Assembly: GCF_016481275.1 (NCBI RefSeq)
Contig: NZ_JAEMNW010000003.1
Coordinates: 1-64,000 of the forward strand
DNA from: Antrihabitans auranticaus
GTDB lineage: Bacteria; Actinomycetota; Actinomycetes; Mycobacteriales; Mycobacteriaceae
Direction: 5' to 3'
DNA length: 64,000 bases
Part shown: in pieces, positions 35,519 to 50,822 of the stretch
How the letters are laid out: each line of letters starts with the position of its first letter
How positions within the stretch are numbered: the stretch's first letter is position 1
The notes under the pieces: model-generated
The model's input: only the letters and a program-made list of their open reading frames with translations
What the model was told of the DNA's origin: nothing
The model's database searches: none
Made by a program: the position numbers and the translations under genes

Positions 35519-36709
<1,191 letters not shown>

Positions 36710-37058: not shown

Positions 37059-37548
37059 AACGGCGCTCCGCGCTACAAAGAACGAAAGTCAGCGAAGGGG
37101 TGGACAGTGCGCGCAATGATGCCCCGGTCGGTCGCCCCGAGCCGGGCATCCGGCGTGCGACATGAGCCGCTGGTCCCGCCGCACTCGGCACGTCCGGCAA
37201 CATCTGCATCCGCGCGCGACACGCGACCCCCTCGTGTTCCTCGACACAAATCACGACGACCCTCGCAACCCAGTAGAACGCATCAGCAACTTTTCGGCAA
37301 CCGGGCAAATCGATCATGTAAATCCTTTCAATGCCCGATTAGCACGCATGGACAGGCGACCAGTCACGGCCATCCGAATCCGGCATCCTGGCGCCGTGCA
37401 GTAGCTATCCATTCCGGACCGAGCGGTCTTCTCGCACGAATCGCACCCCGAATGTAGGAATTCAGTTACTGAGCCGCTAATATCAAAGGCAAACGATTGT
37501 CCAGATGTATGTATCGATTTTCGGCGAAGGGATGTGGGGCGGCTTACT
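37059..37548. other. About 490 bp with no supported gene
   Basis: Short frames exist on both strands (for example + 37162-37404) but have mixed, Arg/His/Pro-rich composition and no ribosome sites. From 37440 the base composition becomes more AT-rich, which fits the promoter region of the HTH gene at 37549. No hairpin or operator was recognised. Confidence 0.5.
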
Positions 37549-37965
37549 ATGGCTGATTTTGCTGCACGGCTGAACAAGCTGTTCGAGACCGTGCATCCGC
37601 CTGGGCGCAAACCGCACACCAACGCCGAGGTCGCAGCTGCACTGACCGAATCGGGCCATCCGATTTCGAAGCCCTACCTGTCGCAGTTGCGCTCCGGGCA
37701 GCGGACAAACCCGTCCGATGAGACCGTCGCCGCACTGGCAAAGTTCTTCAAGGTCAAGTCCGACTACTTCTTCAACGACATCTACGCAGCCAAGATCGAC
37801 CATGACCTCGAGCTGTTGTCTCAGCTCCAGGGCTATGGCCTACGCAGGCTGTCGAGTCGGGCGTTCGATCTGTCGGAAGAGTCGCAGAATCTGCTGACCT
37901 CCATGGCCGAGAAGCTTCGCGCCAGCGAGGGCCTGCCCGAGATTCCGCCCGACGGCACCGAATAG
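37549..37965 (+). CDS. EspR-like helix-turn-helix regulator
   Basis: A 138-residue protein starting MADFAARLNKLFETVHPPGR, followed by KPHTNAEVAAALTESGHPIS, PYLSQLRSGQRTNPS, ALAKFFKVKSDYFFND. This is the same layout as M. tuberculosis EspR (FAARLNRLFDTVYPPGR... PYLSQLRSGNRTNPS). It has an XRE-type HTH in the N-terminal half and a C-terminal dimerising helix region. The ATG at 37549 was chosen by alignment to EspR; the ribosome site is weak. It converges on the membrane-protein gene with a 6-bp gap. The same kind of HTH protein often accompanies ImmA/IrrE genes, as here. Confidence 0.82.
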   Translation: MADFAARLNKLFETVHPPGRKPHTNAEVAAALTESGHPISKPYLSQLRSGQRTNPSDETVAALAKFFKVKSDYFFNDIYAAKIDHDLELLSQLQGYGLRRLSSRAFDLSEESQNLLTSMAEKLRASEGLPEIPPDGTE

Positions 37966-37971
37966 CCTGAG

Positions 37972-38958
37972 TTACTTTTCGCCGACTTTGTCGTAGGCGG
38001 CCGCGATGTCGCCTACCCACCGGCGTGTCGACATGCCCGCAGGTGGCGCAATCCACTGTGTGTCTACAGGGTCGGCGTTCAGCGGGTCGTGAACCCACGC
38101 CGCAACAGCACTCGCTCGTCGCGGGCCATCCGGCGGCGGTGCAGTAGGCAGCGGTGCGATTCCGCCGCCGCCGGCCTGCAAGTACAGAGCGTCCATGATC
38201 TGCGCGACCTGGTCGGATGCTTTCAGCACAGTCGTCGAGTGTTCCGGATCATCGTTGGCGACCTCAGGGAATCGCTTCGTGAGGTCCGCGTGTAATTGCC
38301 TTACGCGGCGCATGAGCAATCGTGCACGAAACCAGACCTCGACGAGAATCCACACCGCTCCGACAGACACGAGCAGTGCAGCCAGCGACCACGCCCAGGT
38401 AGGACCCGGGTGTTGCGCCTCCTCCCGGCCGCGAATCAGCGACGCTGCACGGCCCGCCGCAAGGACCGCGATTATCGTCGTGCCCGCCGTGAAGAGAGCG
38501 ACTCCGCGACCCAGAGGCGTCCAGTCGACCGAGCGCAATCCGGTGATCATGATGAAGGCGGTCGCGAGGAGAAGTGCGATCCACCCAACGATCGTGGTGG
38601 CAAACAGCGTTGCGAGACCGACGACGAGCCCGCCCGAGTAAATTGCAGCAGCCTTGCGCCGCAAGCGATTTCGCGAGGTGATCGGCCACGCCGCGGCTGC
38701 GACAACCGATCCCCCGGCAGCGAACACCACCCACATCGCGAGCTGCAGGCGTGCCGACAATTCGTGACCGTCGCGGGCGAACTCCACGCGGTCGACTGTC
38801 ACAGCGACCTCTGGGATAGCGATGGTGACGGCCGCCGCGACAGCTGCGACCGCCACGACGATCGCCAACCGCACAGTCGTCGCAGGCCGCACCAGCACAC
38901 GTCCGACTCTCGCGCCGGCTGCGATCCACACTGCCAGCGCGGTCAACCAGAAACTCAC
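37972..38958 (-). CDS. Multi-pass membrane protein with cytoplasmic tail, unknown function
   Basis: A 328-residue protein with about six transmembrane segments in residues 1-220 (for example LAIVVAVAAVAAAVTIAI, LQLAMWVVFAAGGSVVAAAA, WIALLLATAFIMITGL, WSLAALLVSVGAVWILVEV). A cytoplasmic tail contains RLLMRRVRQLHADLTKRFPE. The layout recalls MAB_1171c/DUF6545-type putative transporters, which also occur next to EspR-like and ImmA/IrrE genes, but identity is not certain. The GTG start overlaps the protease stop (GTGA). Confidence 0.72.
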   Translation of the reverse strand: MSFWLTALAVWIAAGARVGRVLVRPATTVRLAIVVAVAAVAAAVTIAIPEVAVTVDRVEFARDGHELSARLQLAMWVVFAAGGSVVAAAAWPITSRNRLRRKAAAIYSGGLVVGLATLFATTIVGWIALLLATAFIMITGLRSVDWTPLGRGVALFTAGTTIIAVLAAGRAASLIRGREEAQHPGPTWAWSLAALLVSVGAVWILVEVWFRARLLMRRVRQLHADLTKRFPEVANDDPEHSTTVLKASDQVAQIMDALYLQAGGGGIAPLPTAPPPDGPRRASAVAAWVHDPLNADPVDTQWIAPPAGMSTRRWVGDIAAAYDKVGEK

Positions 38959-39470
38959 CCGAGAGCCTCGTCCAGCCGAAGGACGGATACCCCGGTGCCG
39001 CGGTTACCGAAAACCCGCAGCCTGGTGAGCAGCATGCTCGAAAACGTCTCGGCCTCCCACTCGGCGAGTTCGTCGGCACCATCGTCGACGATCTGCTGGT
39101 AGGACCGCTGACTCAGCATGTACGCGATCAGATCGTCGCTCGCCTCGAGCATGACCTCGCGAGCCGGTTGGCCATCGTGCTTGAAGACGATGTGGCCGAG
39201 TTCGTGAGCCAGGGTCCGCTCGCGACTCGGCAGGCGCGATGCCAGAACGATGACATCGCGATCCGGGTACGCCCGTCTCTGACCACAGACTCCCGGTCCC
39301 AGTTCGGCCGCGGCGATTTCGATCGGACGCTTTCGCTCTGCTGCCACCGCGGCGACGACCTCGTCGAGCGTCACCGAATCCGAATCAGCAGCAAGCGCAC
39401 ACACCGCATCTACCGCAGCGGCCACGCGCCGGTAGGGCCGCGCGGCTTTCTTGTCAGTTTCGGAGACCAT
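38955..39470 (-). CDS. ImmA/IrrE-type metallopeptidase
   Basis: A 171-residue zinc protease-like protein. HELGH (in ERTLAHELGHIVFKH) supplies two His ligands and the catalytic Glu, and the Glu in EWEAETFSSMLL is the likely third ligand. ImmA/IrrE proteases typically cleave an XRE-family repressor. I chose the ATG at 39470 because GAGGA lies 5 bases upstream; the GTG at 39482 is the alternative. It is the middle gene of the operon surface protein, protease, membrane protein. The EspR-like HTH protein next door is a candidate substrate. Confidence 0.82.
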   Translation of the reverse strand: MVSETDKKAARPYRRVAAAVDAVCALAADSDSVTLDEVVAAVAAERKRPIEIAAAELGPGVCGQRRAYPDRDVIVLASRLPSRERTLAHELGHIVFKHDGQPAREVMLEASDDLIAYMLSQRSYQQIVDDGADELAEWEAETFSSMLLTRLRVFGNRGTGVSVLRLDEALG

Positions 39471-39478
39471 CTGTGTCC

Positions 39479-40690
39479 TCACGCACCCGTGCCAAAGAAT
39501 TCAGCGCGAGCTGATGCCACTCGAGCTTGGCTCAAGTTGGCGTTGTTGTAACTGATCGCACCGGCAGCACCGCCCGCGAGGGCAAGTGCGATGAGACCGC
39601 CGAGCACACCCAACGCATTCGGGAGCGGCTTCGAAGCATTCGTGTTCACGAAATCCGGCGGGGGCGTGTTTTCTGCCTCAACCGCGGGCGGTGCCGTGAC
39701 CGCAGGAATCGCTTCGGGCGCCTGCTCGGCGACTACCTCCGGCACCGACTCTGCCGCAACCAGCGTTTCGACTTGCGGCAGCACAAGCGGGACGAGGTCC
39801 GAGGGCGGAAGCACGATGGACGAAACCACCGGCGGCAGCCCGGGCGACACCGGCGCCACGTCGAGCGGCACGCTGATGAACGGACGAATCGGAGTCTGAC
39901 GCTGATGGGGCAGGGTGCCGCCGCCATGAGCGCCGACGGAAGGAACAGCCGGGATCGGCGGGACCTCGACTTCGTCGCAGTCGTCGTCGGGGTCGCTCAG
40001 ATTGTTGAGCTGGGTGTGATTGGGCTGCACGTGGTTAGGCAGCGTGTGGTTGTTCGTGAAGGGGTTGTGCAGAGAGTTGTTCGACAGGGGGTTGTTCGGA
40101 CCCGGGTTGTTCGGGATGGGGTGCTGAACCGAAGGGTTTCCGTTGCCGCCGCCCGGCCCATGACCCGACAGCCCGTTGTTGGTCGAGCCGCCGTGCGAGC
40201 CGTTCCCGGAGAGTCCGTTGTTCGTCGAACCACCGTGCAACCCGTTGCTCGGTTGGCCGTAACCCGGACCGTTGCCCGGACCGCTGCCCGACGACCCGTG
40301 GCCGTTGTTGGAAGGGCCGTTGTTCGACGGACTGTTGTTGGAAGGGCCGTTGTTCGACGGGCTGTTGTTCTGTTGGCCGTTGTTGTTCTGGCCATTGTTG
40401 TTCGAACCCGACGAACCGCCGTTCGAATGTCCCTGACCGCCGCCACCACCACCGCCATTGCTGTGGCCGCCGCCGTTATTACCGCCGCCGTTATTGCCGT
40501 GGCCGCCGCCGCCACCGTTACCACCGCCACCGCCGCCGTTCCCGCCGCCGGGGTGTTGCGCGAAGTGACTGGATTGCGTGGCGGCACCGTCGAACTGCGA
40601 ACCGGCACCTGCAGTCGGAGGTACGAGCAGGGCAAAGAAGACAGCCGCGCCGACAGTTGCTGCCGCGCGAGTGACGCGAACATTCGCCAT
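39479..40690 (-). CDS. Secreted Gly/Asn-rich cell-surface protein
   Basis: A 403-residue protein, not recognised as a known family. In order: a signal peptide (MANVRVTRAAATVGAAVFFA... cleavage near AGA/GS, about 29), a low-complexity region from about 47 to 235 made of GGGN, NNG, PSNN and GLSG units, an acidic patch DPDDDCDEVE, a Pro/Val-rich spacer, and a C-terminal hydrophobic helix (about 358-381) with a short charged tail. This suggests a wall-spanning, membrane-anchored surface protein. A strong GGGAGGA precedes the ATG at 40690. The protease gene starts 8 bp after it. Confidence 0.75.
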   Translation of the reverse strand: MANVRVTRAAATVGAAVFFALLVPPTAGAGSQFDGAATQSSHFAQHPGGGNGGGGGGNGGGGGHGNNGGGNNGGGHSNGGGGGGGQGHSNGGSSGSNNNGQNNNGQQNNSPSNNGPSNNSPSNNGPSNNGHGSSGSGPGNGPGYGQPSNGLHGGSTNNGLSGNGSHGGSTNNGLSGHGPGGGNGNPSVQHPIPNNPGPNNPLSNNSLHNPFTNNHTLPNHVQPNHTQLNNLSDPDDDCDEVEVPPIPAVPSVGAHGGGTLPHQRQTPIRPFISVPLDVAPVSPGLPPVVSSIVLPPSDLVPLVLPQVETLVAAESVPEVVAEQAPEAIPAVTAPPAVEAENTPPPDFVNTNASKPLPNALGVLGGLIALALAGGAAGAISYNNANLSQARVASARAEFFGTGA

Positions 40691-40894: not shown

Positions 40895-41803
40895 TCACGC
40901 GGTGCCATAAACGGGCACCGGCGGAACTGCCGTCGCAATCAATTTGTGTACGACTTCGCCCAGTTCTGTGGGATTCCACCGTGCACCTTTATCGACGACC
41001 TCACCGTGCCGCCAGCCGTCGGCAACCGAGACTTTGCCGCCTTCGACCTCGAAGACGCGACCGGTGACGTCTGCGGACTCGGTGCTACCGAGCCAGACCA
41101 CCAGTGGCGAGACGTTTTCCGGCGCCATCGCGTCGAATCCCGCATCCGGCTTCGCCATCGTTTCCGCAAATGCGGCTTCCGTCATCCGTGTTCGGGCCGC
41201 CGGCGCGATCGCGTTGACCGTCACGCCGTACCGGCCGAATTCCGCTGCCGCATTCAATGTCAGACCGGCGATTCCAGCCTTTGCAGCGGCGTAATTCCCT
41301 TGCCCGATACTGCCGGCGAGCCCGGCGCCCGAACTCGTATTGATAATTCTTCCGGCGACGGGCTTTCCTGCTTTGGATTGCCCTCGCCAATACTCGATTG
41401 CGTGCCGCATCGGCGCGAAGTGGCCCTTCAGATGCACCCGAATTACAGCATCCCACTCGTCTTCACTCAGGTTTGCCAACATTCGGTCGCGCAGGAAGCC
41501 GGCGTTGTTTACCAGCACATCCAGCGTTCCGAAGTTCTCGAGCGCTGTGGCGATGAGATCCTTTGCGCCGGACCAGTCTGCGACGTCGGCACCGTTGACG
41601 ACGGCTTGACCACCGGCTGCGACGATCTCGTCGACAACCTCCTGGGCAGGATCGCTCGACGACGCCGAACCATCCAGGCCCGCACCGAGATCGTTGACGA
41701 CGACCTTGGCTCCCTCGGCCGCGAATGCCAGCGCGTGCGCTCGCCCGATTCCTCGCCCCGCGCCCGTCACGATCACGACGCGCCCATCACACAAACCTGA
41801 CAC
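40895..41803 (-). CDS. SDR oxidoreductase of the KstR2 locus (Rv3548c-like)
   Basis: A 302-residue classical SDR: GAGRGIG, VNNAGFLRDRM, Ser in NTSSGAG, YAAAKAG, and a C-terminal extension (WLGSTESADVTGRVFEVEGG...). It resembles Hsd4A in design. The GTG at 41803 has AGGAG 6 bases upstream; a long upstream in-frame extension is rejected. It follows the other SDR by 2 bp. Position opposite echA20 corresponds to Rv3548c, whose step in HIP breakdown is not settled. Confidence 0.85.
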   Translation of the reverse strand: MSGLCDGRVVIVTGAGRGIGRAHALAFAAEGAKVVVNDLGAGLDGSASSSDPAQEVVDEIVAAGGQAVVNGADVADWSGAKDLIATALENFGTLDVLVNNAGFLRDRMLANLSEDEWDAVIRVHLKGHFAPMRHAIEYWRGQSKAGKPVAGRIINTSSGAGLAGSIGQGNYAAAKAGIAGLTLNAAAEFGRYGVTVNAIAPAARTRMTEAAFAETMAKPDAGFDAMAPENVSPLVVWLGSTESADVTGRVFEVEGGKVSVADGWRHGEVVDKGARWNPTELGEVVHKLIATAVPPVPVYGTA

Positions 41804-41805
41804 TG

Positions 41806-42600
41806 CTACTCCTTGTTCGAACTTGCGAGGTGTTGTTCGGCAGCGGCGAGAAATGCCGGACGTTCGCCGCCGCCGTGGACTGTGAGCGTGCTTCCGCTTA
41901 TGTAGGAAGCAAGGGGGGACGCCAAAAATGCTGCGCAACGGCCGATATCGGCCGGCTGTGCCATGCGGCCGAGCGGCACGGTTTCTGCGACGGCCGCGAC
42001 GCCCGCGCTGTCCCCGTAGTGCAAGTGACTGGCCTCCGTCTCGACCAGGCCGACGACTATCGAGTTGATCCGGACTTTCGGCGCCCACTCGACGGCCAAG
42101 CTGGAGACGAGGCTGTCGATTCCTGCCTTTGCGGCGCCGTATGCGGCTGTCCCGGGTGATGGCCTTCGGCCACTGACACTCGAGATCATCACAATCGAGC
42201 CGCCCGTTTGCTGACTTTGCATGACGGCGTTCGCAGCCTGCGAAACCAGCAGTGGCGCGAGCAGATTCAGCTCGATGATCTTCGAGTGAAAATTCGCGCT
42301 CGCGTCGGCGGCCAGCGCGAACGGGGCTCCGCCGGCGTTGTTCACGACGGTGTCGAGTTGGCCGTGCCGCGCAACGATGCGATCGACGAGAGCCGCGACC
42401 GCATTGGGATCGCGGACATCGCAGCTCTCGAATTCGAGTCTGCGATCCCCGAACTCGATCGGCTCCGGCGAGTTCCGCCGGGCACATGCGACGACGGTCG
42501 CACCCGCTTCGAGGAACACCCTGCTGATTCCCGCACCGACGCCACGTACACCGCCGGTCACGAGGACCACGGAATTGTCCAAAGCAAGGTTGATACTCAC
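41806..42600 (-). CDS. SDR oxidoreductase of the KstR2 locus (Rv3549c-like)
   Basis: A 264-residue SDR with GGVRGVGAGIS for cofactor binding, NNAGGAPFA, the catalytic Ser in ISSVSG and YGAAKAG. It is the first gene of the leftward unit and is divergent from echA20 across an inverted repeat like the KstR2 site. Order equals Rv3549c/Rv3550. Its substrate is likely a C/D-ring intermediate acyl-CoA. Confidence 0.86.
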   Translation of the reverse strand: MSINLALDNSVVLVTGGVRGVGAGISRVFLEAGATVVACARRNSPEPIEFGDRRLEFESCDVRDPNAVAALVDRIVARHGQLDTVVNNAGGAPFALAADASANFHSKIIELNLLAPLLVSQAANAVMQSQQTGGSIVMISSVSGRRPSPGTAAYGAAKAGIDSLVSSLAVEWAPKVRINSIVVGLVETEASHLHYGDSAGVAAVAETVPLGRMAQPADIGRCAAFLASPLASYISGSTLTVHGGGERPAFLAAAEQHLASSNKE

Positions 42601-43454: not shown

Positions 43455-44336
43455 GTGCGCGACAAGAGAATGACCCTCGACGACGTCGTGGCGCAGCTAC
43501 GCAGCGGAATGACGATCGGCATCGGCGGCTGGGGTTCGCGCCGAAAGCCGATGGCTCTCATCCGCGCAATTCTGCGCTCCGACCTCACGGACCTCACCGT
43601 TGTCACCTACGGCGGACCCGACCTGGGCCTGCTGTGCTCTGCCGGAAAGGTGAAGAAGGTCTACTACGGCTTCGTCTCGCTGGACTCGGCACCGTTCTAC
43701 GACCCGTGGTTCGCCAAGGCCCGGACGACCGGAGCTATCGAGTCCCGCGAGATGGACGAAGGCATGGTCAAGTGCGGCCTCGAAGCCGCTGCGGCTCGAT
43801 TGCCTTTCCTCCCGATCCGCGCCGGGCTCGGTTCCGACGTCCTCAATTTCTGGGGCGACGAGCTCAAAACCGTTGTGTCCCCGTATCCGGACGAGTCCGG
43901 CACCCCCGAGACGCTGGTCGCGATGCCGGCGTTGAAACTCGATGCCGCACTGGTTCATCTGAACATCGGCGACAAGCACGGCAACGCCGCTTACACGGGC
44001 GTCGACCCCTACTTCGACGACCTGTTCTGCATGGCCGCAACTCAGCGGTTCGTCAGCGTCGAGCGGATCGTCGAGACGGACGAACTGGTGAAAGCCGTTC
44101 CGCTGCAAGCTCTTCTGCTAAACCGAATGCTGGTCGACGGCGTAGTCGAAGCGCCCGGCGGAGCGCATTTCACCCTCGCCGGAGACAGCTACGGTCGCGA
44201 CGAGAAGTTCCAGCGTCACTACGCGGAATCCGCGAAGGACCCCGAGTCGTGGCAACAGTTCGTCGACACCTATCTGTCGGGTAGTGAAGAGGACTACCAG
44301 GCAGCAGTCGCACGGTTTACGGAGGCGAACTCATGA
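43455..44336 (+). CDS. ipdA: IpdA, alpha subunit of COCHEA-CoA hydrolase
   Basis: A 293-residue class I CoA-transferase-like subunit: IGIGGWGSRRKPMALIRAIL and VVTYGGPDLGLLCSAGKVKK. Glu102 in SREMDEGM is the candidate catalytic acid, corresponding to the Glu reported in the M. tuberculosis enzyme. With IpdB it hydrolyses the last steroid ring of COCHEA-CoA; it is not a true transferase. It starts with GTG at 43455 and overlaps ipdB by 4 bp. Confidence 0.92.
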   Translation: MRDKRMTLDDVVAQLRSGMTIGIGGWGSRRKPMALIRAILRSDLTDLTVVTYGGPDLGLLCSAGKVKKVYYGFVSLDSAPFYDPWFAKARTTGAIESREMDEGMVKCGLEAAAARLPFLPIRAGLGSDVLNFWGDELKTVVSPYPDESGTPETLVAMPALKLDAALVHLNIGDKHGNAAYTGVDPYFDDLFCMAATQRFVSVERIVETDELVKAVPLQALLLNRMLVDGVVEAPGGAHFTLAGDSYGRDEKFQRHYAESAKDPESWQQFVDTYLSGSEEDYQAAVARFTEANS

Positions 44337-48721: not shown

Positions 48722-49096
48722 GTGCCGTACGTTCTTGTCGGGCTCATAACGCTTGCGCTGTGGGTGTATTGCGTTGTCGACGTCATCACGTGTCCCGAAC
48801 ACGCGACCAGGAATCTGCCGAAGATCGCGTGGCTGATCGTCGTCTTGATCATCCCGACGATCGGATCGATCCTGTGGCTCGTCGCTGGGCGACCGGTCGG
48901 CGGTCAGCGCATGTCCAACACCCGCTTCGGCGAATACGACCGGCCAGGTCGGCAGGTTGCGCAGAACCCCGAGGACGACGAGGCGTTCCTGCGGCGCCTA
49001 CGCGAACGCGCCGAATCACAGCGCCGCGAAGCCCAGCGGCAAGAGGAGCAGCGCCAGCGTGACCAAGAGCGGCGGTGGAACAGCGGGGAGGGCTAG
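48722..49096 (+). CDS. Small membrane protein with PLDc_N-type domain
   Basis: A 124-residue protein with two transmembrane helices (VPYVLVGLITLALWVYCVVDV and IAWLIVVLIIPTIGSILWLV) joined by ITCPEHATRNLPK. This is the phospholipase D/cardiolipin-synthase N-terminal (PLDc_N) pattern, followed by a charged Arg/Glu/Gln coiled tail. The GTG at 48722 is chosen over an upstream ATG because it puts the first helix at the N-terminus. The gap 48552-48721 holds only promoters. Confidence 0.8.
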   Translation: MPYVLVGLITLALWVYCVVDVITCPEHATRNLPKIAWLIVVLIIPTIGSILWLVAGRPVGGQRMSNTRFGEYDRPGRQVAQNPEDDEAFLRRLRERAESQRREAQRQEEQRQRDQERRWNSGEG

Positions 49097-49139
49097 GAGC
49101 TAAGCATTTCTGTCGGTACCCGCACCTATAGTCGAACAC

Positions 49140-50822
49140 ATGAGCGAGGGCGGGGTGTGGGGGGCGGTGCGGGATGTGGAGTTGCTGGATGTCCTGCGTG
49201 ATCGGCACCGGTCGGCGGCGATCGCTCAGTGCGGTGAGGTGGACGCGGTCACCGAGCTGTATCGGCGTCGCGTGGTGTGGGACCGCAACCGCGGGGTGAA
49301 CGCCCGCGATGCCGGGGAAACCGCGGGGGTGGAAGCGGCGGCGGCGTTGCGGGTGACGGAGGGAGTGGCGAATTCGTTCATCGATGTCGGGTTGGCGTTG
49401 CAGGGGTTGCCGCTGACGCGGGCAGCGTTCGCGGTCGGGGATATCGATCTGGCGCGGGTGCGGGTGCTGGTGGAGTTGACGATGAACCTGTCGGCGGAGT
49501 TGATCGCCCGGTTGGAGGGACGGTTGGTGGATGCGGCGCGGTCGTCGAATCCGGGCCGGTTGCGGGTCAACGGGCGACGTTGGATCGCGGCGGCGGATCC
49601 GTCGGGGGAGAAGGGCCGCCGGGAGCGGCGGGTCGAGGATCGGGATGTGCGGGTGCGGGCCACCACGGATGGGATGGCGTTTCCGGACGGGTTGTTACCG
49701 GTCGGGGGTGCGCAGACGGTGGCGGCGCGGTTGGTGGAGTTGGCACAGGAGGTGTGTGGGAAGGATCCGCGGTCGTTTGCGCAGCGGCGCGCTGATGCGT
49801 TGGTGGTGTTGGCGGACGGGTCGGGCCGGTTGGTGTGTGGGTGTGGGCAGGGGGTGTCGTGTCCGGTGGCGGGGGTTGAGCCGGGTCCGGCGCGGAAGCC
49901 GTTGATTCAGGTGGGGGTGTCGGTGGAGACGTTGCTCGGGTTGCGGGAGTGGCCGGGGTATGTCGCGGGGTTGGGTGTGGTGGATGCGGATCTGGCGCGG
50001 ATGTTGGCTGTGGACGGTCGGTGGGAATGGGTGATGGCGGCCATCGACGCGGCGGTGGAGCAGGAACGCACCGCCGGCGACCGCGCGGATTCGGTGAGAC
50101 CAGCCACGGCGTGCGAGGACGCGACTCCCGCCGCACCGGCTGATCCGGTTCCGCAACCAGCGCGTCCGCGGACCGCTGCGGGCCGGGCGGTGGCGGCGGT
50201 CGGTTCGTGTGCGGGTTCGGGGGTGTGGGACGACCCGGAGTCACCGGGGGCGTTGCGGTACGAGTGGAGTGCCGGGTTGGCTCGCTGGATCCGGGCCCGC
50301 GATGGGACGTGCCGGTTCCCGGGATGCGTGGTGGCCGCGGCGCGGTGCGATATCGATCATTGCGAGCGGTACAACCACCGTCGGCCTCGCGCGGGTGGTC
50401 GCACGATCCGCAGCAACGGGGCGTGTTTGTGTCGTCGTCATCATCGGTTGAAGACCGCGGGTGAGAACGGGGGTAACGGGTGGCGGGTCCGTCAACTCGG
50501 TGACGGACGGTTGGAGTGGACGACCCCGACCGGTGAACTGATTGCGACCGAACCGACCGGGGCCGGGTTTCTCTGGCCGACAACAGAGATCGGTGAGGTC
50601 TGTCCGAAACCAGTCGAGGTGCCGGCAGCCGTGGGTGGCTGGGTCGTATGCTCCGACCCGACCTTGCTGCAGGAAATGAACCGGACCGGTATCACCGTGG
50701 AGGAGCAGCTGCGGTTCATGCTCGAGGTGGCGGGGGTGCAGGTGCGCCGCACACGCGTACAGCCCCAACCACCTACACCGGCAGAGGACCCACCCGACCC
50801 CGACGAACCCCCACCGTTCTAG
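49140..50822 (+). CDS. DUF222/13E12 protein with HNH nuclease domain
   Basis: A 560-residue protein. The DUF222 domain is at the N-terminus, then a Pro/Ala-rich linker. Around residues 383-435 lies an HNH fold: ARDGTCRFPGCVVAAARCDI, DHCERYNH, and NGACLCRRHHRLKT with the metal ligands. The coding strand is unusually G-rich (TTG, GTG, GGG, GCG codons preferred), unlike the C-ending codons of its neighbours, which suggests separate origin. It lies between the two KstR2-controlled blocks, and its end overlaps fadA6 by 4 bp (convergent). The biological role of the family is unknown. Confidence 0.9.
   Translation: MSEGGVWGAVRDVELLDVLRDRHRSAAIAQCGEVDAVTELYRRRVVWDRNRGVNARDAGETAGVEAAAALRVTEGVANSFIDVGLALQGLPLTRAAFAVGDIDLARVRVLVELTMNLSAELIARLEGRLVDAARSSNPGRLRVNGRRWIAAADPSGEKGRRERRVEDRDVRVRATTDGMAFPDGLLPVGGAQTVAARLVELAQEVCGKDPRSFAQRRADALVVLADGSGRLVCGCGQGVSCPVAGVEPGPARKPLIQVGVSVETLLGLREWPGYVAGLGVVDADLARMLAVDGRWEWVMAAIDAAVEQERTAGDRADSVRPATACEDATPAAPADPVPQPARPRTAAGRAVAAVGSCAGSGVWDDPESPGALRYEWSAGLARWIRARDGTCRFPGCVVAAARCDIDHCERYNHRRPRAGGRTIRSNGACLCRRHHRLKTAGENGGNGWRVRQLGDGRLEWTTPTGELIATEPTGAGFLWPTTEIGEVCPKPVEVPAAVGGWVVCSDPTLLQEMNRTGITVEEQLRFMLEVAGVQVRRTRVQPQPPTPAEDPPDPDEPPPF

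What the first reader, a model, noticed from the sequence alone, without database searches (positions are those of the whole stretch)
39479..40690. Extreme low-complexity Gly/Asn region between signal peptide and anchor
About 190 residues consist almost only of Gly, Asn, Ser, Pro and His, with repeated PSNNGPSNN and GGSTNNGLSG units, on DNA of repeated GTTGTT/GCCGCC tracts. Such DNA is prone to slippage, so length variation between strains and phase-like variation of a surface protein are possible.
Basis: seen in the sequence. Interest (0 to 1): 0.5.

Follow-up and report, generated by a model that had tools for sequence, protein, structure and literature searches.

The report
Variable disordered protein beside EspR
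The odd glycine/asparagine stretch is the fast-changing, floppy outer part of a membrane protein whose gene travels with a protease, a seven-helix membrane protein and the DNA-binding regulator EspR, which hints at a signalling route from cell envelope to genes in relatives of the tuberculosis bacterium.

Summary
Residues 46-210 of a 403-aa protein (window 40061-40555, minus strand) are 90% Gly/Asn/Ser/Pro/His with 15-nt in-frame repeats, between a signal peptide and a C-terminal membrane helix. The Gly/Asn stretch is lineage-specific: long, medium, short or absent in four Antrihabitans genomes. What is conserved is the architecture, the Gly/Ala-rich helix with a basic ARxxAARAEFF-like tail, and the company. 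The gene overlaps an M78 (ImmA/IrrE-type) metallopeptidase gene, which overlaps a seven-helix membrane protein gene, facing the genome's only espR. Of 89 family genomes with this peptidase (E <= 2e-40) I examined 80; all 63 with at least 4 kb in hand keep peptidase, membrane gene and an espR homologue together, in at least three different neighbourhoods. Tandem arrays occur in 61 of 64 anchor genes against 0 of 64 peptidase genes; lengths differ in 30 of 31 close pairs, by whole codons. So in-frame length change is supported between species (strains untested); on/off phase variation is not. Best reading: a disordered envelope-side arm of a module that acts on EspR through proteolysis. The linkage is shown; the mechanism is inferred. 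I found no description in the searches named.

The parts
39479..40690 (-). Anchor gene: signal peptide, low-complexity ectodomain, Pro-rich linker, membrane helix, basic tail (403 aa); no Pfam or NCBIfam family
   Evidence: homologues with the same architecture
40604..40690 (-). Signal-peptide-like N-terminus (aa 1-29)
   Evidence: read by eye; no signal-peptide program was available
40061..40555 (-). Gly/Asn low-complexity segment (aa 46-210)
40299..40403 (-). 15/30-nt tandem repeat array encoding SPSNNGPSNN-type units
39614..40060 (-). Linker (aa 211-359): Asn-rich end, acidic patch, Pro/Val-rich sequence
39554..39613 (-). Gly/Ala-rich membrane helix (aa 360-379)
39482..39553 (-). Conserved tail (aa 380-403), SYNNANLSQARVASARAEFFGTGA; two Arg present in 63 and 62 of 64 relatives
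38955..39482 (-). M78 (ImmA/IrrE-type) metallopeptidase gene; GTGA overlap with the anchor gene
37972..38958 (-). Seven-helix membrane protein with helical C-terminal part, distantly like the MAB_1171c family; GTGA overlap with the peptidase gene
37534..37965 (+). espR homologue, convergent with the operon, only match in the genome

Best explanation
The gene encodes the envelope-side arm of a conserved four-gene module: anchored low-complexity protein, M78 metallopeptidase, seven-helix membrane protein, and EspR. Shown: the architecture, the gene linkage, the conserved helix and tail, and in-frame repeat turnover of the ectodomain between species. Inferred: the ectodomain is a disordered tether whose exact sequence hardly matters; the helix and basic tail contact the seven-helix protein and/or the peptidase; an envelope state is relayed to the peptidase, which cleaves or inactivates EspR, as PprI does DdrO and ImmA does ImmR, and so changes EspR-bound gene expression. 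The Gly/Asn composition is one lineage's way to be long, soluble and unfolded; it is neither a specific binding sequence nor an on/off switch.
For: Linkage: 63 of 63 loci of 4 kb or more, from 11 genus labels, carry the seven-helix gene and an EspR homologue by the peptidase, with different surroundings in different genera. Coupling: start/stop overlaps of 1 or 4 nt at 25 of 64 anchor-peptidase junctions and 28 of 34 peptidase-membrane junctions. Anchor: the helix-and-tail model matches at 64 of 80 loci; tail Ala 64/64, Arg 63/64 and 62/64. In G033, where the anchor gene is missing from the locus, a stand-alone ORF of the same architecture lies about 1.5 Mb away. Peptidase: above Pfam's cut-off, HExxH and EWEAE invariant in 34 of 34, model nearest to CapP (E 4.8e-4) and PprI (E 0.016). 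Where three g6 genomes hold two EspR copies, the module sits by the copy less like the window's EspR, 3 of 3. Free ectodomain: arrays in 61 of 64 anchor genes against 0 of 64 and 7 of 64 for the two neighbours. Precedent: PprI cleaves DdrO (PMC10904395, abstract in the listing); ImmA is needed for ImmR inactivation (PMC2701414, passage).
Against: No cleavage, binding or phenotype is known for these proteins. EspR homologues are common without the module: 214 of 301 genomes match at E <= 1e-10, weak matches included, and 12 of 28 inferred mycobacteria have espR but no such peptidase within about 5 kb on either side. The anchor is dispensable: of 12 examined inferred mycobacterial loci with the module, seven have a diverged TM-plus-tail ORF and five have none; G017 shows none. 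EspR is described as a nucleoid-associated protein rather than a simple repressor (PMC3315491, title, abstract start and passages).
Confidence: 0.45

Rival explanations
1. Repeat-variable surface protein: the ectodomain is the working end (adhesion, biofilm, evasion), and slippage-driven change is selected for diversity; the downstream genes only regulate it.
For: Tandem arrays and rapid length change. A knockout of MAB_1171c, namesake of the family to which the membrane protein is distantly alike, lowered biofilm mass by about half in M. abscessus (PMC8707978, passages).
Against: No folded or recognisable binding domain; the conserved part is the helix and the tail that should face the inside; composition is exchanged wholesale between genera; linkage to espR is unexplained.
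Confidence: 0.15
2. Passive envelope spacer or scaffold: a disordered filler protein without a signalling role, its gene kept in the operon only for co-expression.
For: Low-complexity composition; anchor absent from some loci that keep the other genes.
Against: Strong conservation of helix and tail; the gene sits directly before the peptidase at most loci and is retained apart from it in G033.
Confidence: 0.2
3. Toxin-antitoxin-like or phage-defence control unit, the M78/HTH pair being the regulator and a membrane protein the effector.
For: M78 and Xre-type genes often pair in such units (PMC2701414, passages); the nearest solved fold of the peptidase is CapP, known to me (recalled) as a CBASS regulator.
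Against: One copy each of peptidase, EspR and anchor tail in the window's genome; stable linkage across the examined loci; no toxin domain by Pfam or NCBIfam. PADLOC and PHROGs were not searched.
Confidence: 0.08

Closest known systems
M78 peptidase plus HTH repressor pairs: PprI(IrrE)-DdrO, ImmA-ImmR, CapP-CapH
   Same: M78 peptidase with intact HExxH beside a helix-turn-helix DNA-binding protein; fold nearest to CapP and PprI
   Different: The HTH partner is EspR, a nucleoid-associated protein; two membrane proteins, one with a disordered ectodomain, belong to the unit; the signal and the cut are unknown
EspR (Rv3849) of Mycobacterium tuberculosis
   Same: Full-length homologue, E 1.5e-37 to 3r1f
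   Different: Here it faces an operon of anchor, peptidase and seven-helix genes; in M. tuberculosis rv3848 lies directly upstream of espR (PMC3315491, passage), as in the 12 module-less relatives
MAB_1171c family putative transporters (NF042915)
   Same: Multi-helix membrane protein; 8 of 34 aligned relatives match at E <= 0.01, best 2.2e-8
   Different: The window's protein scores 11 bits against a cut-off of 100
Single-pass envelope sensors such as the RsgI anti-sigma factors
   Same: Single-pass protein with a long outer part and a short inner part thought to control a regulator (general knowledge; listing only)
   Different: Signal peptide and opposite orientation, an inner tail of only 24 residues, no anti-sigma domain found; partners are a peptidase and EspR

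Membership tests
Peptidase M78 (ImmA/IrrE) | Pfam PF06114 match above the curated score | tested here: met
   27.5 bits against 22
Peptidase M78 (ImmA/IrrE) | HExxH zinc motif and downstream glutamate motif | tested here: met
   HExxH and EWEAE invariant in 34 of 34; which Glu binds zinc was not tested
Peptidase M78 (ImmA/IrrE) | Cleaves a partner HTH protein | not testable with these tools
   Inferred from linkage only
EspR | Homology over the HTH and the C-terminal part | tested here: met
   Residues 7-134 align to 6-133 of 3r1f, E 1.5e-37
EspR | Nucleoid-associated binding to many sites | not testable with these tools
   Known for the M. tuberculosis protein (PMC3315491)
MAB_1171c family (NF042915) | Score above the curated cut-off of 100 bits | tested here: not met
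   11 bits; no match at E <= 0.01 for this member
GPCR-like seven-helix fold | Significant structural match | tested here: inconclusive
   Z 13.6-16.7 over about 190-214 residues in the 50 rows shown, but no Foldseek match at E <= 0.001, and helical bundles reach about 14 by chance according to the tool
Phase-variable surface protein | Simple repeat whose length change shifts the frame | tested here: not met
   No homopolymer above 5 and no long frame-shifting repeat in the gene; 347 of 353 family arrays are multiples of 3
Phase-variable surface protein | Length or expression variation between strains | not testable with these tools
   One genome per species; close species differ in length in 30 of 31 pairs
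RsgI-type membrane anti-sigma factor | Cytoplasmic anti-sigma domain | tested here: not met
   No Pfam or NCBIfam match; inner tail of 24 residues
Toxin-antitoxin unit | Recognisable toxin component | tested here: inconclusive
   None by Pfam or NCBIfam; PADLOC not searched

The most novel reading that the evidence does not exclude
EspR, the nucleoid-associated virulence regulator of the tuberculosis bacterium, ancestrally belonged to a transmembrane relay not described so far: a disordered, repeat-evolving envelope arm and a receptor-like seven-helix protein control an M78 peptidase that disposes of EspR; part of the mycobacteria later lost the relay and kept EspR alone.
Probability: 0.33. 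Interest if true: 0.8.

Novelty: new variant of a known kind. Interest (0 to 1): 0.58.

Why it matters
As far as I know (recalled), what controls EspR activity is not settled. If espR was ancestrally paired with a membrane-linked peptidase, its control becomes directly testable in laboratory Rhodococcus strains, and the absence of the module from part of the mycobacteria becomes a question about how EspR was rewired. The anchor protein also offers a natural series for asking what a disordered envelope segment must keep when nearly all of its sequence is replaceable: 64 relatives with a near-constant helix and tail and ectodomains rich in Gly/Asn, Thr/Pro, Ala/Gly or Asp/Arg.

Tried and rejected
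Wrong frame or non-coding: rejected. Relatives keep this frame with N-terminal hydrophobic stretch, helix and tail.

Foreign island: G+C at the locus (0.63-0.66 per kb) is like the rest of the window, and the module lies in the same kind of surroundings in the Antrihabitans genomes examined.

Family names for the anchor: none in Pfam or NCBIfam. A profile of the peptidase against PDB sequences gave nothing at E <= 0.1; the fold search did.

Outside the family: 16 of 296 genomes of the class match the peptidase profile at E <= 1e-10, 15 of them in the window's own family, one weak outlier.

Anchor sought elsewhere in 17 genomes (12 g29 with module, 3 g29 without, G033, G017): 10 match at E <= 0.1, of which one is convincing (G033, 3.4e-19); the other nine (E 0.0019 to 0.072) are weak and were not counted.

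Literature. None of the papers listed links EspR to an M78 peptidase or describes this module, judging by titles, abstract starts and the passages I opened. One search was useless (its word-start terms matched unrelated words), and only 20 of 4,119 and 12 of 1,056 papers were listed. The library holds only openly licensed papers. Opened: passages of PMC3315491, PMC8707978, PMC2701414; for all others I saw the listing only.

Rows left out: of the 89 strong-match genomes, G183, G243, G095, G264, G132, G272, G176, G290 and G214 were not examined. Weaker matches were not examined. G164 is cut by its contig end; it is counted among the 64 but not in the range 174-501 aa (63 genes). G034's tail match is only E = 1 and was accepted for its place and sequence. 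The 58 pairs and the 31 are not independent. Anchor start codons were chosen by a simple rule of mine, so ectodomain lengths carry some error. Genus labels are the tool's; taking g29 as Mycobacterium is my inference from its EspR and its neighbours (Rv and sodA names recalled). Gene names of the steroid block and GlpR are recalled too.

Full report
What is there. The window belongs to the genus Antrihabitans by its nearest named relatives for the peptidase, A. stalagmiti (83%) and A. stalactiti (81%); the assembly has 6.5 Mb in 24 contigs. The gene at 39479-40690 on the minus strand encodes 403 residues: a signal-peptide-like start, a Gly/Asn-rich segment (aa 46-210, 90% G/N/S/P/H), a linker that becomes Pro/Val-rich, a Gly/Ala-rich membrane helix and a 24-residue tail with two Arg. 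The low complexity is far beyond chance. Its repeats are 15 and 30 nt, in frame.

Its neighbours. The stop codon overlaps by four bases a possible GTG start of an M78 metallopeptidase gene (PF06114, 27.5 bits against a cut-off of 22), whose stop overlaps by four bases the GTG start of a 328-residue membrane protein gene. Facing them is a full-length EspR homologue, E 1.5e-37 to the M. tuberculosis protein, the only match in the genome. HExxH and EWEAE are invariant in the 34 peptidases aligned, and the peptidase model (pLDDT 82) is nearest to CapP and then PprI in the PDB. The membrane protein model is confident (pLDDT 92): seven long helices, the seventh running on, and a helical C-terminal part. 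Structural alignment gives GPCR-like folds at Z 13.6-16.7, but Foldseek finds nothing at E <= 0.001, so I claim only seven-helix topology.

How conserved. A peptidase alignment was searched in 301 genomes of the family: 115 match at E <= 1e-10, 89 of them at E <= 2e-40. I examined 80 of the 89. In 63 of these the locus in hand is at least 4 kb, and all 63 have the seven-helix gene and an EspR homologue. The surroundings differ between genera: steroid-degradation-like genes (thiolase and/or dehydrogenases) here and in g19, g22 and g31; a GlpR-like gene in 7 of 9 g23 loci (g23 holds the named Rhodococcus loci); Rv3850-like genes in 12 of 12 g29 loci, with an Rv3848-like gene in 9. In g21 and g9 (eight loci) espR lies upstream on the same strand instead of facing the operon. 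In the three g6 genomes with the module there are two EspR copies, and the module lies by the copy less like the window's (73-76% against 82-87% identity). A unit that stays together while its surroundings change is the strongest evidence here for a joint function. In the class at large the peptidase type is nearly confined to this family.

The anchor protein. 64 of the 80 loci match a model of helix and tail. Of the 16 that do not, 12 are g29, two are cut by contig ends, G017 shows none, and G033 lacks the gene at this place. G033 nevertheless has a stand-alone ORF of 518 residues about 1.5 Mb away with N-terminal hydrophobic stretch, Ser/Gly/Thr-rich ectodomain, helix and tail. Of the 12 g29 loci, seven have a diverged TM-plus-tail ORF; five do not, one of these with what looks like a decayed remnant. 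Among the 64, one tail Ala is invariant and two Arg are present in 63 and 62, while the ectodomain ranges from 174 to 501 residues in the 63 complete genes. Its leading residues change by lineage: G/N/P/S here, P/S/G/N, P/N or plain Pro in the sister species, P/A/S/G/E or T/P/G in g23, A/G/P in most g22, P/D/R in one MAG. In the fourth Antrihabitans genome (L015) there is no Gly/Asn segment at all. All nine named loci have the architecture.

How it changes. Tandem arrays are found in 61 of 64 anchor genes (353 arrays in 69 kb), 0 of 64 peptidase genes (32 kb) and 7 of 64 membrane genes (64 kb) of the same loci; 347 of the 353 have periods divisible by three. Some such periodicity is expected in coding DNA, but the contrast with the neighbouring genes is not. 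In 31 close pairs the anchor gene differs in length in 30, always by whole codons, and its aligned DNA identity is below that of the peptidase gene in all 31. In G082, G096, G121, G154 and G244 an Asn/Gly array and a Thr/Glu/Pro array both differ between nearly identical flanks. So the idea of length change by repeat turnover is supported for close species; strain data are not held. On/off phase variation is not supported: no frame-switching tract, and no broken frame among the 63 complete genes, with the caveat that these were found as open frames; the decayed g29 remnant would look like gene loss, not switching.

How it may work. M78 peptidases beside HTH regulators can act on that regulator: ImmA is required for the inactivation of ImmR (PMC2701414, passage), and PprI cleaves DdrO (PMC10904395, abstract in the listing). 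By that precedent the peptidase here would act on EspR. The two membrane proteins would supply the trigger; the anchor's conserved parts lie in and behind the membrane, and its outside is long, presumably unfolded and replaceable. A tether or a tension or occupancy sensor spanning part of the envelope fits these facts best. Every step from 'linked' to 'acts on' is inference.

Against this reading. EspR-like genes are common without the module: 214 of 301 genomes match at E <= 1e-10. Of 28 g29 genomes with EspR, 16 have the peptidase and 12 do not; for those 12 no peptidase or membrane gene of this type was found within about 5 kb of espR. Some module carriers lack the anchor. No biochemical evidence is known to me, and EspR is described as nucleoid-associated rather than a simple repressor.

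Verdict. Taken alone, the low-complexity region is an ordinary disordered ectodomain. Its setting is not ordinary: a conserved unit, undescribed in the searches I made, that ties a membrane-anchored disordered protein and a peptidase to EspR. Odds were lowered from 0.5 to 0.45 for the full mechanism while weighing module-less EspR genomes and anchor-less modules.

Noticed in passing
window 35546-36709 (+), 40895-42600 (-), 42.7-43.45 kb (+), 43455-44336 (+): The module interrupts a block that looks like steroid-ring (cholesterol side-route) degradation: FadA6-like thiolase, two short-chain dehydrogenases, an EchA20-like and an IpdA-like gene (names recalled).
   Followed up: partly
window 49001-50000: Strongest GC skew of the window (+0.37) with 69% G+C.
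   Followed up: no
L168 1498-3054 (-): Stand-alone anchor gene in G033, far from the peptidase locus.
   Followed up: partly
L093, just upstream of the M78 gene: Possible remnant of the anchor helix (GGMLVVTGAGGL) in a decayed frame of an inferred mycobacterial genome.
   Followed up: partly
L139-L150: Twelve inferred mycobacterial genomes have espR without the module, one of them (L139) with sodA-, Rv3847-, Rv3848- and Rv3850-like neighbours.
   Followed up: partly
L042, L106, L041, L045, L043: Five g23 genomes carry an Asn/Gly-rich stretch of their own, followed by a variable Thr/Glu/Pro array; looks like convergence with the window's stretch.
   Followed up: partly
G054: Six matches to the MAB_1171c family in one genome of another genus, some beside M78 matches.
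   Followed up: no
L005, L018: The fourth Antrihabitans genome has a second, distant M78 gene.
   Followed up: no
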